From Eudoraea sp. (lineage in GTDB: Bacteria > Bacteroidota > Bacteroidia > Flavobacteriales > Flavobacteriaceae), in contig JAHEHU010000010.1 of NCBI GenBank assembly GCA_024639765.1, positions 1-50,247 of the forward strand: a stretch of DNA of 50,247 nt. Reading direction: 5' to 3'. Shown here one piece after another: positions 22,825 to 29,832 of the stretch. Each line of letters begins with the position of its first letter. Within the stretch, counting starts at the first letter, position 1. The position numbers were made by a program, and so were the translations under genes. A model generated the notes under the pieces. It was given only the letters and a program-made list of their open reading frames with translations, was not told where the DNA came from and made no database searches.

Positions 22825-23484
22825 ATGACCAAATCTGAAAAAGTTGATTTTACGATCAAAACTTTACGTGAATTATACCCGATAATTCCGGTTCCTTTGG
22901 AACACAAAGATCCCTACACCCTTCTTATAGCAGTATTGCTTTCCGCACAAAGCACAGATGTACGTGTTAACAAGATCACCCCAAAACTTTTTAAAAGGGC
23001 CGATAATCCTTATGATATGATTAAATTATCCGTAGAGGAGATCAGGGAAATCATAAAACCTGTAGGGCTTTCGCCCATGAAATCTAAAGGTATTTACGGC
23101 CTGTCTAAGATACTGGTAGAAGAGTATGAGGGAGACGTGCCTAAAGACATCTCTTTATTAGAAAAATTACCAAGCGTTGGGCATAAAACCGCAAGTGTTG
23201 TAGTCTCTCAGGCTTTTGGAATACCTGCCTTTCCTGTAGATACCCATATCCACAGATTAATGTACCGATGGGGGTTCTCTACAGGGAAGAACGTTGTAAA
23301 AACTGAGCGAGATGCCAAAAGGCTGTTTCCCAGAGAATTGTGGAATGACTTACACCTTCAGATCATCTGGTACGGAAGGGAATATTCACCTGCCCGTGGA
23401 TGGGACCTCGAAAAAGACATCATTACCCGTACTATTGGGAGAAAAAAAGTACTTCAGGAATATGCCAAAAAAAAGGCCCGCTAA
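22825..23484 (+). CDS. nth: Endonuclease III homolog without iron-sulfur cysteines
   Basis: A 219-residue base-excision repair DNA glycosylase/lyase. The helix-hairpin-helix is LPSVGHKTASVV with catalytic lysine K121, and the catalytic aspartate is D139 in PVDTHIHRLMYRWG. The C-terminal region after residue 170 contains no cysteine, whereas E. coli Nth ends in C-x6-C-x2-C-x5-C holding a [4Fe-4S] cluster; here that stretch reads WYGREYSPARGWDLEK. Clusterless members are known in some bacteria, so activity is likely retained. The terminator of the opposite-strand small ORF overlaps its stop codon. Confidence 0.88.
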   Translation: MTKSEKVDFTIKTLRELYPIIPVPLEHKDPYTLLIAVLLSAQSTDVRVNKITPKLFKRADNPYDMIKLSVEEIREIIKPVGLSPMKSKGIYGLSKILVEEYEGDVPKDISLLEKLPSVGHKTASVVVSQAFGIPAFPVDTHIHRLMYRWGFSTGKNVVKTERDAKRLFPRELWNDLHLQIIWYGREYSPARGWDLEKDIITRTIGRKKVLQEYAKKKAR

Positions 23485-23492
23485 TGCGAGCC
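23467..23492 (-). terminator. Intrinsic terminator after the first 47-codon ORF
   Basis: On the minus strand GGCTCGC (23492-23486), loop ATTA, GCGGGCC (23481-23475), then eight T (23474-23467). The 7-bp stem includes one T-G pair. It lies across the nth stop codon (23482-23484) and starts 8 nt after the small ORF stop. Confidence 0.8.
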
Positions 23493-23499
23493 GTAGTTC

Positions 23500-23643
23500 T
23501 TAGTTCAGGATCATTTCGAAACTGAATTGCCTGTGCTTAACAATTCTAAGGGCTTTTGAATAAGCCAGCAGAAATTGGATCGTTTCCGGTCCTACTCTGG
23601 GATAGGCTAAGGCGTTTTTTTTAGTTGAGTAAATTTTTTCCAT
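23500..23643 (-). CDS. 47-residue microprotein A downstream of the first sigma factor
   Basis: This ORF is too short for usual gene callers. It starts at ATG 23643, 67 nt after the sigma factor stop, and ends at TAA 23500. The product (MEKIYSTKKN..., then TIQFLLAYSKALRI..., ending EMILN) has no cysteine, signal or membrane helix; the middle looks like an amphipathic helix. It has a paralog of identical length at 24629-24772, 18 of 47 positions identical, concentrated in FLLxYSKxL and ILN. The conservation of size, spacing and C-terminal ILN argues for a real gene. Function unknown; a sigma-associated regulator is only a hypothesis. Confidence 0.75.
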   Translation of the reverse strand: MEKIYSTKKNALAYPRVGPETIQFLLAYSKALRIVKHRQFSFEMILN

Positions 23644-23710
23644 ATGATTGTGATATCGTTATGATAAGATAACGCAACCTATATGGAAATATTGTAAAAG
23701 GTGTTATGAA

Positions 23711-24295
23711 CTATGAATTCGTTAGAACAATATTGTTTTTATCAATGATTTTTCTGAGATTGATTAAGGCATAACGCATTCTTCCAAGAGCGGTATTAAT
23801 ACTTACCCCTGTGTTTTCAGAGATCTCCTTAAAACTCATATCCTTGTAAATACGCATTAAAAGAACTTCTTTTTGATCATCTGGCAATTCTTCAATTAAA
23901 AGACTTAAGTCACTGTCTATCTGATCTTTAATTATTTGCTTTTCTGCATTTAATTTGTCATCCCCTATTACGGAAAAGATATTGAAATCGTCACTGCCTT
24001 CAAACTTAGGCATACGCTTATTCTTTCTGAAGTGATCTATGATAAGGTTGTGTGCAATACGCATTACCCATGGAAGAAATTTTCCTTCTTCACTGTAATT
24101 ACCTTTTTTTAGCGTTTTGATCACCTTAATAAAGGTATCCTGGAATATATCCTCAGTTACATCACGGTCCAGTACTTTTGAATAAATAAAACTACTTATT
24201 CTCTGGTTGTGCCTGTTGATTAAGATCTCTAATGATTTTTCATCCCCGCTGATGTAATCATTAACTAGTAGTGAATCGTCCTTTAGTGGTTTCAT
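23711..24295 (-). CDS. ECF-type RNA polymerase sigma factor A
   Basis: A 194-residue sigma-70 family factor of ECF architecture. Region 2 contains TEDIFQDTFIKVIKTL and the WVMRIAHNLIIDHFRKNKR segment that contacts the -10 element; region 4 contains MSFKEISENTGVSINTALGRMRYALINLR for -35 recognition. Between them lies a short acidic linker. No anti-sigma membrane gene is adjacent; instead a 47-codon ORF follows. Close tandem paralog at 24841-25422, about 75% identical by hand count (144 of 193). Target genes unknown. Confidence 0.95.
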   Translation of the reverse strand: MKPLKDDSLLVNDYISGDEKSLEILINRHNQRISSFIYSKVLDRDVTEDIFQDTFIKVIKTLKKGNYSEEGKFLPWVMRIAHNLIIDHFRKNKRMPKFEGSDDFNIFSVIGDDKLNAEKQIIKDQIDSDLSLLIEELPDDQKEVLLMRIYKDMSFKEISENTGVSINTALGRMRYALINLRKIIDKNNIVLTNS

Positions 24296-24541
24296 AGTTA
24301 GATAATCTTTTTGGTTTCTTTAAAGTTCTTCAGCCTTGCTTTTGAACTTAGGTTGTTAAATAAATTTGAGTTACTTGTTTTTCAATAACAATTTAAAAGT
24401 ACCCAAACAGCCACCCTCAGGAAAAACTATGTTGTAAAACACCCGATTCTTGATGTGAACACACATATTCGTATTTGGCAGTGCCTAAATCGCGAAAATA
24501 TCTATTCCACCCTGTGAATTAATTAAGAGCCAGAAGCGCAT

Positions 24542-24570
24542 AAAAAAAGGCGCTTTTGTTTCAAAGCGCC
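24542..24570 (-). terminator. Intrinsic terminator after the second 47-codon ORF
   Basis: On the minus strand GGCGCTTT (24570-24563), 6-nt loop, AAAGCGCC (24556-24549), then T run (24548-24542). It separates the second sigma cassette from the first sigma gene, so each cassette appears to be its own transcription unit. Confidence 0.85.
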
Positions 24571-24628
24571 TATACTCTATAAGAATGATGTTTATTTGAC
24601 CTCTATAAAAGAAAACATTGTCTACGCA

Positions 24629-24772
24629 TCAATTTAATATGTTCTCAATGGTTATTCCCTTCACCTTACGTATGTGAAGCGATTTTGAATAGTTGAGAAG
24701 AAAATCAACCGTGCTCTTTTGAGCGGTGATTAGCTTACAATGTTTTGGATCCTTGGAGTAAATGTCTTGCAT
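24629..24772 (-). CDS. 47-residue microprotein B downstream of the second sigma factor
   Basis: The paralog of the ORF at 23500-23643. It starts at ATG 24772, 68 nt after the stop of its sigma factor, and ends at TGA 24629. The product (MQDIYSKDPKHCK..., then TVDFLLNYSKSLHI..., ending ENILN) is 47 residues, has one cysteine, and is probably soluble. The stem FLLxYSKxLxI and the end ILN match microprotein A without any gap. A terminator follows 58 nt after its stop. Identity between the microproteins (38%) is far below that of the sigma factors (75%), so they evolve faster. Function unknown. Confidence 0.75.
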   Translation of the reverse strand: MQDIYSKDPKHCKLITAQKSTVDFLLNYSKSLHIRKVKGITIENILN

Positions 24773-24840
24773 AGAATCTGTATTACCCCTAAATAACGGC
24801 AGATAGGGAGCAATAATAGAATTCTTCGTCCTAAAACCTA

Positions 24841-25422
24841 TTAATTCGTTAAAACAATTTGATTCTGCTCAATGATCTTGCGGAGATTGATCAAAGCATA
24901 TCGCATACGTCCCAAGGCGGTATTTATACTAACCTGGGTGTTCTCAGCGATCTCATTAAAACTCATGTCCTGATATATTCTCATACGCAGCACCTCCTGC
25001 TGATCTTTGGGCAACTGTTCAATAAGGACCTCTAAATCCTGGTCTATTTGCTCTTTGATCAGCTGCTTTTCAGCATTTAACTTATCATCCGTTAGAACAG
25101 AGAATATATTGAACTCTTTGTTTCCCTGATATTTCGGCATCCGTTTATTACGCCGAAAATGATCTATGATCAGATTATGGGCAATACGCATGATCCAGGG
25201 CAAGAACTTGCCTTCCTCATTATATTTACCGCGTTTCAAGGTACTTATAACCTTTATAAAGGTGTCTTGAAATATATCCTCGGTAATAGACATGTCATGT
25301 ACCTTGGAATAAATATAGCTGCTTAGGCGCTGATTGTGTTTGTTGATCAAGATCTCAATGGCTCGTTCATCACCATTGATATAATTACTTATGAGGATAG
25401 CATCGTCAATCGTTGTTTGCAT
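24841..25422 (-). CDS. ECF-type RNA polymerase sigma factor B
   Basis: A 193-residue factor with the same layout as sigma factor A: TEDIFQDTFIKVISTLKRG and IMRIAHNLIIDHFRRNKR in region 2, and MSFNEIAENTQVSINTALGRM in region 4. Only 49 of 193 aligned positions differ, and most are conservative. The ATG at 25422 aligns with the start of its paralog; the ORF extends to 25494 but those 24 residues have no counterpart. A -7 box lies about 120 nt upstream. The gene is divergent from uvrA, an arrangement common in Flavobacteriia. Confidence 0.95.
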   Translation of the reverse strand: MQTTIDDAILISNYINGDERAIEILINKHNQRLSSYIYSKVHDMSITEDIFQDTFIKVISTLKRGKYNEEGKFLPWIMRIAHNLIIDHFRRNKRMPKYQGNKEFNIFSVLTDDKLNAEKQLIKEQIDQDLEVLIEQLPKDQQEVLRMRIYQDMSFNEIAENTQVSINTALGRMRYALINLRKIIEQNQIVLTN

Positions 25423-28659: not shown

Positions 28660-29832
28660 ATGAAAAATCTACTACTCATTTTAGGAGCCTTTGCACTGAG
28701 TAGCTCAGTGGGGGCCACAACCTTAGAAGAAAATCTTGCGATCAGCAATACATTTCGATATAACAACTCCGTAATTTTTGTGGAAAACGGAATTACATTT
28801 TCTGTGTATAGAGATGGTGAGTTCGATTTTTACATAGACAACCAGGTAAATTTTGGCGCCAATGTTAACATTGGTAGGGCCAACCTTACATTTAATTCTG
28901 GATTCGATTATGGTCCTTTTGTACAGTATGATGACTATGGTGCCGTGATCCAGGTACAGAATGTACCCATTTTTTATGACTACTATGGACGTGTTTCACA
29001 GATAGGTGGCATTAATGTATGGTACAACAATGGCAGGCTCAGAAGAGTTGGAGGCTTACATGTATACTATAACAACCGGGGAATGTTCAACAGATTCAAT
29101 GGTTATATAAATGTATACAACAGGTTTTATACCTATAACCCGTATCACGCCTATTTCGCAAGACCTGCCCTTGGTTTTTGTCTGGTGTACAACAGACCTT
29201 ACAGAAGGTATTATGCCCCTATACGATATACCTATTACAGGCCTTATTACAACAACTATAGAAGGACGTATGCCAGAGTAGGTAACCACTACAGATATAA
29301 TAACAGGCAAGATAGATCTCGTATCTATCGTAACGACAGACGCGTGGTGGCCAGAAATAATAACAGCAGAAGAAATGATGGGTATGCCCGCAATGACAGG
29401 CAGCTTCGCGACACCAAAGGTCGCCGTAGCAATGGACAGTTTCGGGATACTAAGAGTAGCCGTAGTAATAAAGTAGCCAGCAATGGCAGAACGGCCTCCA
29501 GGACAGAAACTATGCGATCTAAGCGGACTATGGATGGGAAAAGATCTAGTACTCAAACCAGAAGCACGAGGTCTACCCAGGTGAAAAGGAATAGCTCAGG
29601 AACCATAGGTAGAAGTAATGCCGGAAAGGCAGTCACTCAAAGAAAAGTGGTTCGTACGCCTAACAAAAATGTTGCCAGTAGAAGTAAAACTACTTCTAAT
29701 CGCCCGCAGCGTACACAGAGAACCGCTGTTAGTCGCAAGACAGTAAGTACAAAAAGAAGTGGTCCTAAAGCTACAACAAGATCTGCAAGTAAGACCAATG
29801 TATCTCGAAGCAGAAGCCGAAGAGTGCAATAA
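28660..29832 (+). CDS. Secreted protein with aromatic repeats and a highly basic tail
   Basis: A 390-residue protein with a signal peptide (about 1-19, ending SVGA). Residues 20-90 form a beta-rich domain. Around residues 95-150 there are short repeats of the type INVWYNNGRLRRVGG / LHVYYNNRGMFNRFNG. Next comes a tyrosine-arginine-rich stretch (RRYYAPIRYTYYRPYY). From about residue 220 the sequence is low complexity, made almost wholly of R, K, S, N, T and Q, giving a strongly basic tail. No known enzymatic motif is present. It may bind anionic polymers such as DNA, polysaccharide or the outer membrane surface. It appears to be driven by an RpoN-type promoter. Confidence 0.78.
   Translation: MKNLLLILGAFALSSSVGATTLEENLAISNTFRYNNSVIFVENGITFSVYRDGEFDFYIDNQVNFGANVNIGRANLTFNSGFDYGPFVQYDDYGAVIQVQNVPIFYDYYGRVSQIGGINVWYNNGRLRRVGGLHVYYNNRGMFNRFNGYINVYNRFYTYNPYHAYFARPALGFCLVYNRPYRRYYAPIRYTYYRPYYNNYRRTYARVGNHYRYNNRQDRSRIYRNDRRVVARNNNSRRNDGYARNDRQLRDTKGRRSNGQFRDTKSSRSNKVASNGRTASRTETMRSKRTMDGKRSSTQTRSTRSTQVKRNSSGTIGRSNAGKAVTQRKVVRTPNKNVASRSKTTSNRPQRTQRTAVSRKTVSTKRSGPKATTRSASKTNVSRSRSRRVQ

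What the first reader, a model, noticed from the sequence alone, without database searches (positions are those of the whole stretch)
23500..25422. Duplicated cassette: ECF sigma factor plus a paralogous 47-residue microprotein
Two tandem sigma factors (about 75% identical, 144 of 193 by hand count) are each followed on the same strand by an ORF of exactly 47 codons, after 67 and 68 nt. The two small products align without gaps with 18 of 47 identical positions, including FLLxYSKxL and a terminal ILN. Each cassette ends in its own intrinsic terminator. Duplication of unit, spacing and length together is hard to obtain by chance. The small proteins diverge much faster than the sigma factors (38% against 75%), as expected for a partner that sets specificity. 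They are below usual gene-calling limits. I know of no described sigma-microprotein pair of this kind.
Basis: partly seen in the sequence, partly recalled or inferred. Interest (0 to 1): 0.85.

Follow-up and report, generated by a model that had tools for sequence, protein, structure and literature searches.

The report
Sigma factor's 47-residue feedback microprotein
Beside a stress-type transcription factor these bacteria carry a tiny protein gene that is widely conserved, has its own sigma-type promoter, and looks like the shrunken remnant of the inhibitor that normally holds such factors in check.

Summary
The two 47-codon ORFs belong to a conserved protein family. All 114 sigma copies in 80 related loci plus the window are followed by a homologous ATG-started ORF of 46-51 aa. 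Pooled dN/dS is 0.13. A profile matches 178 of 199 genomes of the family; a profile of longer cousins matches 153 of 295 genomes of the class.

The fixed spacing holds a conserved ECF-type promoter, CAATAW-N14-CGTT: perfect in 33 of 33 'second' cassettes and 0 of 636 control starts. It persists at 17 of 20 microprotein genes with no sigma nearby.

Homologues grade into 72-89 aa forms whose N-terminal half resembles zinc-less class I anti-sigma domains. The 47-aa forms keep only a C-terminal helix and tail.

Best reading: a sigma-induced mini anti-sigma factor closing a feedback loop. Protein, promoter and ancestry rest on sequence; binding and inhibition are inferred. Dedicated pairing with the own sigma is not supported: distances correlate better across cassettes. 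The fused model gives no evidence of docking.

The parts
24841..25422 (-). ECF sigma factor of the first (upstream) cassette, 193 aa
   Evidence: Pfam Sigma70_r2 2.5e-14, Sigma70_r4_2 2.1e-9; 75% identical to the other copy
24793..24818 (-). ECF-type promoter of the first microprotein: -10 CGTTAT kept, -35 box 4 of 6
   Evidence: 2 mismatches to the motif; class pattern of first cassettes
24629..24772 (-). 47-aa microprotein of the first cassette
   Evidence: ORF; profile E 2.2e-21
24548..24571 (-). intrinsic-terminator-like hairpin with T run after the first cassette
23711..24295 (-). ECF sigma factor of the second (downstream) cassette, 194 aa
   Evidence: Pfam Sigma70_r2 5.6e-14, Sigma70_r4_2 1.3e-10
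23669..23694 (-). ECF-type promoter of the second microprotein, exact match CAATATT-N13-CGTTAT
23500..23643 (-). 47-aa microprotein of the second cassette
   Evidence: ORF; profile E 8.1e-20
23475..23492 (-). intrinsic-terminator-like hairpin with T run after the second cassette, overlapping the end of the convergent HhH-GPD gene

Best explanation
The ORF encodes a real, conserved microprotein. From sequence: it has its own ECF-type promoter, is under purifying selection, and is homologous to the C-terminal part of longer proteins whose N-terminal half resembles a class I anti-sigma domain. Inferred: the ECF sigma, once active, transcribes the microprotein gene from that promoter; [quoted passage not shown] That makes a sigma-induced negative feedback loop run by a reduced, soluble anti-sigma factor that has lost the three-helix bundle. 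Whether each microprotein acts on its own sigma, on the paralogue or on both is open.
For: 114 of 114 sigma copies are followed by the gene; dN/dS 0.13; 178 of 199 genomes of the family. Promoter: 6/6 -35 box at fixed spacing in 33/33 second cassettes, >=5/6 in 45/48 single cassettes, against 5/636 control starts, and 0/114 upstream of the sigma genes. In the 30 best loci from other families CGTT is present in 30 and a sigma upstream in 29. 17 of 20 unlinked microprotein genes keep the promoter with the same 20-nt box distance. hhalign: 47-aa family to 54-70 aa forms 97.6%, those to the long forms 96.7%, 47-aa family to long forms 94.9%. The long-form profile hits N-termini of larger proteins; of 18 fetched, 16 have a sigma upstream (seven of them by matches under 20 bits) and 16 a hydrophobic stretch; three of six tested have Pfam zf-HC2 above its cut-off. 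The long forms' N-terminal half matches an independently chosen zf-HC2 set at 85%, shuffled controls at most 0.7%. In class I anti-sigmas helix 4 holds 12 of the 14 top-scoring contacts, with sigma2 (PMC7406223, passages read).
Against: No direct evidence of binding. The AlphaFold2 model of a read-through sigma-microprotein has pTM 0.48 and gives no evidence of docking; no interface data are returned. Covariation was uninformative (Neff 58; 14 of 25 top pairs in sigma2, which holds 61 of 126 variable sigma columns). Same-cassette distances correlate less than cross-cassette ones. The 47-aa family has no similarity of its own to anti-sigma domains (hhalign 0.3% and 0.2%); against long forms without the five 89-aa linking proteins the match falls to 18% (68% for the 54-70 aa forms). 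Its model is one helix plus a hairpin. First-cassette promoters have largely lost the -35 box (4 of 33 at >=5/6). Exact-motif hits elsewhere in the own genome are hardly above the reversed control (16 vs 11).
Confidence: 0.55

Rival explanations
1. The microprotein is an effector of the sigma regulon: made when the sigma is active, but acting elsewhere (envelope, secretion, ribosome, protease adaptor).
For: Unlinked copies keep the promoter, as a plain regulon member would. A similar promoter lies before a PorP/SprF-like gene in the near clade: 11 of 24 orthologues with a usable start have CGTTW 20-55 nt before the ATG, against 29 of 483 control starts, so the sigma may have other targets.
Against: Homology through longer forms to anti-sigma domains; adjacency to the sigma in 114 of 114 and 29 of 30 loci.
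Confidence: 0.22
2. The microprotein binds the sigma or RNA polymerase but helps it (co-activator, stabiliser), giving positive feedback.
For: Same genetic evidence as for an anti-sigma: sigma-linked, sigma-type promoter. FecR of E. coli shows that an anti-sigma-type N-terminus can be needed for sigma activity (PMC7406223, passage read).
Against: The relatives found beside sigma genes are of the anti-sigma type, some with zinc motif and hydrophobic segment.
Confidence: 0.13
3. The short transcript acts mainly as a regulatory RNA and the peptide is secondary. Guerin et al. list an sRNA, Rfp11, under an SM6 (CGT-box) promoter in F. psychrophilum.
For: A short transcription unit from promoter to terminator; Rfp11 is under SM6 and conserved in other species (PMC9723704, passages read).
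Against: Purifying selection on the protein, invariant start, length and last residue; no Rfam match in the window at gathering thresholds. Identity of Rfp11 with this gene was not testable.
Confidence: 0.06

Closest known systems
Class I anti-sigma factors (ASDI; RseA, ChrR, RsiW, RskA named in PMC7406223)
   Same: Gene directly downstream of an ECF sigma; the long homologues, some overlapping the sigma stop and two with a hydrophobic segment (L347, L363), share the N-terminal three-helix part; the C-terminal helix stands where helix 4 would stand.
   Different: The 47-aa protein lacks the three-helix part, zinc motif and membrane segment, has a predicted hairpin tail ending in Asn, and has its own ECF-type promoter.
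Class II anti-sigma CnrY (two helices wrapping CnrH; PMC7406223, passage read)
   Same: Very small sigma-binding module; its last helix binds sigma2 like ASDI helix 4.
   Different: CnrY uses two helices; the model here has one helix and a hairpin. No sequence link was found or sought beyond the PDB profile search.
CfrX, small soluble putative anti-sigma of SigX (PMC8999054, passage read)
   Same: Small soluble partner proposed for an ECF sigma.
   Different: Different organism and sigma group (ECF102); no sequence comparison was made.
SM6 promoters and sRNA Rfp11 of F. psychrophilum (PMC9723704, passages read)
   Same: CGT box at -10, ECF-type; SM6 genes include secretion-system components, and a PorP/SprF-like gene carries a similar promoter here.
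   Different: The sigma that reads SM6 was not assigned there, and its -35 logo was not seen by me.

Membership tests
Class I anti-sigma factor (ASDI) | Encoded beside an ECF sigma gene | tested here: met
   114 of 114 and 29 of 30; unlinked copies also exist
Class I anti-sigma factor (ASDI) | N-terminal three-helix bundle that binds sigma4 | tested here: not met
   47-aa family against anti-sigma sets: hhalign 0.3% and 0.2%. Met in the long homologues: 98.2% for their N-terminal half against sigma-linked proteins found by that same profile (partly circular) and 85% against an independent zf-HC2 set
Class I anti-sigma factor (ASDI) | Fourth helix that binds sigma2 | tested here: inconclusive
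   A helix is predicted at 19-31 and aligns with the helix after the bundle in the long forms; binding not shown
Class I anti-sigma factor (ASDI) | Inhibits its sigma | not testable with these tools
   needs an experiment
[quoted passage not shown]
   The model has one helix and a hairpin; a low-confidence single-domain model, so not final
ECF-dependent gene (SM6-like) | CGT box at -10 with a fixed -35 partner | tested here: met
   114 of 114 have CGTT 26-41 nt before the ATG; box-distance test
Group ECF03 | Membership of the sigma in the Bacteroidetes RpoE-like group | not tested
   No ECF-group models were available; best NCBIfam hit PRK12513 is below its cut-off

The most novel reading that the evidence does not exclude
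A class-wide family of 'helix-4-only' anti-sigma microproteins, shorter than the 50-residue limit of the anti-sigma survey, each driven by its own sigma-dependent promoter. It would supply a missing regulator of Bacteroidota ECF sigmas, and in duplicated cassettes it may act crosswise, each microprotein restraining the paralogous sigma.
Probability: 0.4. Interest if true: 0.85.

Novelty: new variant of a known kind. Interest (0 to 1): 0.72.

Why it matters
Only 6% of Bacteroidetes ECF sigmas were found beside a class I anti-sigma, against 32% on average, and the Bacteroidetes RpoE-like group ECF03 lacks a conserved one (PMC7406223, passages read). That survey removed anti-sigma domains under 50 residues. 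This family, mostly 47 residues here, is a concrete candidate for a missing regulator, with a defined promoter and simple genetic tests. It would also show how small an anti-sigma factor can become, and its promoter is a handle on the regulon, which may include secretion-system genes.

Tried and rejected
Chance or decayed ORF: rejected. Known protein family: the 47-aa proteins gave no match at E<=1; longer forms gave none over a curated cut-off. Known RNA family: no Rfam match at gathering thresholds in the window. Solved structures by sequence: 47-aa profile best E 0.32, unrelated; long form best E 0.51, unrelated, with one anti-sigma (DdvA) at E 1.8; long-form profile best E 1.6, unrelated. 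Fold match of the 47-aa model: best E 2.7. Docking from the fused model: no evidence. Covariation: uninformative. Mirror-tree support for cis pairing: against. Regulon by motif in the own genome: 16 hits against 11 for the reversed control; two exact, one the window's own, the other overlapping the 3' end of a 397-aa ORF. porU upstream regions: CGTTW at any tried start in 4 of 23, not convincing. A loose PWM scan of PorP/SprF-like upstream regions was mostly within shuffles; the clade-wise look was clearer. Identity with Rfp11 and orthology of the sigma to P. gingivalis SigP (193 aa, PMC4800418, passages read): leads, not testable here.

Full report
What is there. On the minus strand, between an HhH-GPD (nth-like) gene and a UvrA gene, lie two ECF sigma genes (24841-25422 and 23711-24295), each followed by a 47-codon ORF (24629-24772 and 23500-23643). 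The sigma products are 144/193 identical and the small products 18/47, both without gaps. Terminator-like hairpins follow both small ORFs, though two such sites are no more than shuffles give for the region.

Conservation. A scan of genome contigs with one sigma returned the best 80 loci, all titled as Bacteroidota; the nearest are Muriicola. In these plus the window, 114 of 114 sigma copies are followed by a homologous ORF: ATG in all, 46-51 aa (97 of 114 have 47), gap 51-115 nt. Met1, one Ser and the last Asn are invariant in the 114 rows. Over 26 close pairs pooled dN/dS is 0.13 for the small protein and 0.03 for the sigma, with a third-position excess. By profile the gene is in 178 of 199 genomes of the window's family; of 20 misses listed, 17 are genomes of at most 2.2 Mb. 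With the single window sequence the figure was 174 of 199 at E<=1, including chance matches. In a phylum sample 53 of 395 genomes matched: 41 of the family, 8 of the same order, 4 weakly of the same class; the misses shown are all of other orders, but 322 misses were not shown. A profile of longer cousins matches 153 of 295 genomes of the class (Bacteroidia, by recall of GTDB).

Why the spacing is fixed. The spacers share a bipartite element, CAATAW, 14 nt, CGTT, with CGTT 26-41 nt before the ATG in 114 of 114. With the boxes held at 20 nt, the -35 box is 6/6 in 33 of 33 downstream ('second') cassettes and >=5/6 in 45 of 48 single cassettes, but in only 4 of 33 upstream ('first') cassettes. 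Controls: 5 of 636 intergenic gene starts at >=5/6, none at 6/6; upstream of the sigma genes 0 of 114. So the promoter belongs to the microprotein. The window's second cassette matches exactly (23669-23694); its first cassette keeps the -10 box and 4 of 6 of the -35. In the 30 best loci of other families CGTT is present in 30 and a sigma lies upstream in 29. Of 20 microprotein genes with no sigma in the fetched stretch, 17 carry the promoter at the same box distance, one has a CGTA variant, two have none. A CGT box at -10 is how Guerin et al. describe their ECF-type motif SM6, whose genes include secretion-system components and an 'sRNA', Rfp11 (PMC9723704, passages read).

Possible regulon. 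The exact motif is hardly enriched in the own genome (16 hits, 11 for the reversed control). One hit lies before a gene I take for a PorP/SprF-like secretion protein (by recall of the family). Of 30 orthologues, 24 had a usable start; 11 of these have CGTTW 20-55 nt before the ATG, against 29 of 483 control starts, five of them from the nearest clade with nearly the same sequence. A lead, not proof.

Ancestry. With a sigma from another family, 247 of 295 genomes of the class match at E<=1e-45. What follows that sigma forms a series: proteins of 72-187 aa, some overlapping the sigma stop, two with a hydrophobic stretch (L347, L363); 89-aa proteins, unlinked to the sigma, with both an N-terminal part and the microprotein-like end; 54-70 aa proteins; and the 47-aa proteins. 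Several loci showed no partner in my first, narrow look; some of those genomes later proved to have an overlapping copy (G336, L353) or an unlinked one (G200, G681, G757). hhalign links the 47-aa family to the 54-70 aa forms (97.6%), those to the long forms (96.7%), and the 47-aa family to the long forms (94.9%). The last two rest on the 89-aa proteins: without them the values were 68% and 18%. The long-form profile also hit N-termini of larger proteins. Of 18 fetched, 16 have a sigma-like gene just upstream (nine at 20 bits or more, seven weaker) and 16 a hydrophobic stretch; of six tested, three have Pfam zf-HC2 above its cut-off and two just below. As the profile chose them, their 98.2% match to the long forms' N-terminal half is partly circular. 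A set chosen only by zf-HC2 (29 proteins, 28 beside a sigma-like gene) matches that half at 85% (whole long form 80%), against at most 0.7% in 30 column-shuffled controls. I conclude that the long forms carry a class I anti-sigma domain without zinc ligands. The 47-aa protein has no similarity of its own to such domains (0.3% and 0.2%). The direction, long to short, is inferred. zf-HC2 itself is rare in the family (1 of 21 genomes; 40 of 119 in the class).

Structure. AlphaFold2 gives the 47-aa protein a helix at 19-31 and a hairpin at 32-37 / 40-45, mean pLDDT 76.6, without a PDB fold match (best E 2.7). A fused read-through model has pTM 0.48 and a linker under pLDDT 50; it gives no evidence of docking. 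Its sigma part matches AlgU and sigmaE chains best.

Mechanism. Most likely the sigma switches on the microprotein, whose helix, standing where helix 4 of class I anti-sigmas stands, blocks the polymerase-binding face of sigma2. In class I complexes helix 4 carries 12 of the 14 top-scoring predicted contacts and is thought to set specificity (PMC7406223, passages read). From sequence: protein, promoter, ancestry. Inferred: that this sigma reads this promoter, that the peptide binds it, and that binding inhibits.

Results against. Covariation was uninformative (193 pairs, Neff 58). If each microprotein were tuned to its own sigma, same-cassette distances should correlate best; instead first sigma with second microprotein is 0.78 and second sigma with first microprotein 0.52, against 0.29 and 0.43 within cassettes. 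The order is the same in all seven sets tried, once only by 0.52 to 0.51, and was not tested for significance. It may reflect clade-wide rate changes or real cross-regulation. All 33 two-cassette loci fall on one side of a supported branch of the sigma tree (83 of 114 rows), so they are not many independent cases.

Novelty. Searches of the open library for ECF sigma, Flavobacteria, small protein and uvrA, Bacteroidetes ECF sigmas without anti-sigma, small-protein anti-sigmas, Rfp11, microprotein, anti-sigma and feedback, and F. johnsoniae ribosome profiling (passages of PMC6847099) showed no description of this family in what I saw: listings and passages, no whole papers. Most subscription papers and all preprints are outside that library. 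I rate it a new variant of a known kind.

Noticed in passing
L286-L335 and L164, bases just before the microprotein ATG: GCCT stands directly before the ATG in 9 of 30 loci and 15 of 21 (GCGT in 3 and 1 more). Unexplained; perhaps an initiation signal or leftover of a leader.
   Followed up: no
33 two-cassette loci including the window (23500-25422): Each sigma's distances correlate better with the other cassette's microprotein than with its own.
   Followed up: partly
G000:C97:18696-18721 (L147:1501-1526): ECF-type promoter-like site before a PorP/SprF-like gene in the own genome, conserved in the near clade.
   Followed up: partly
whole genome G000: No match to the T9SS sortase model NF033707 in the own genome, nor in clade-mates G001, G011, G018, G026, G032, G037; 16 of 41 family genomes lack one, 23 have one over the cut-off. 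Loss or strong divergence of PorU in this clade.
   Followed up: no
L164:2274-2420 (minus strand): A 48-aa unlinked microprotein gene ending in GKN between an aldolase-like and a uvrB-like gene (names by recall) in a distant family, with TAATAA..CGTTA upstream.
   Followed up: partly
28660-29832 (+): 390-aa ORF with an Arg/Ser/Thr-rich C-terminal half and no Pfam match at E<=1.
   Followed up: no
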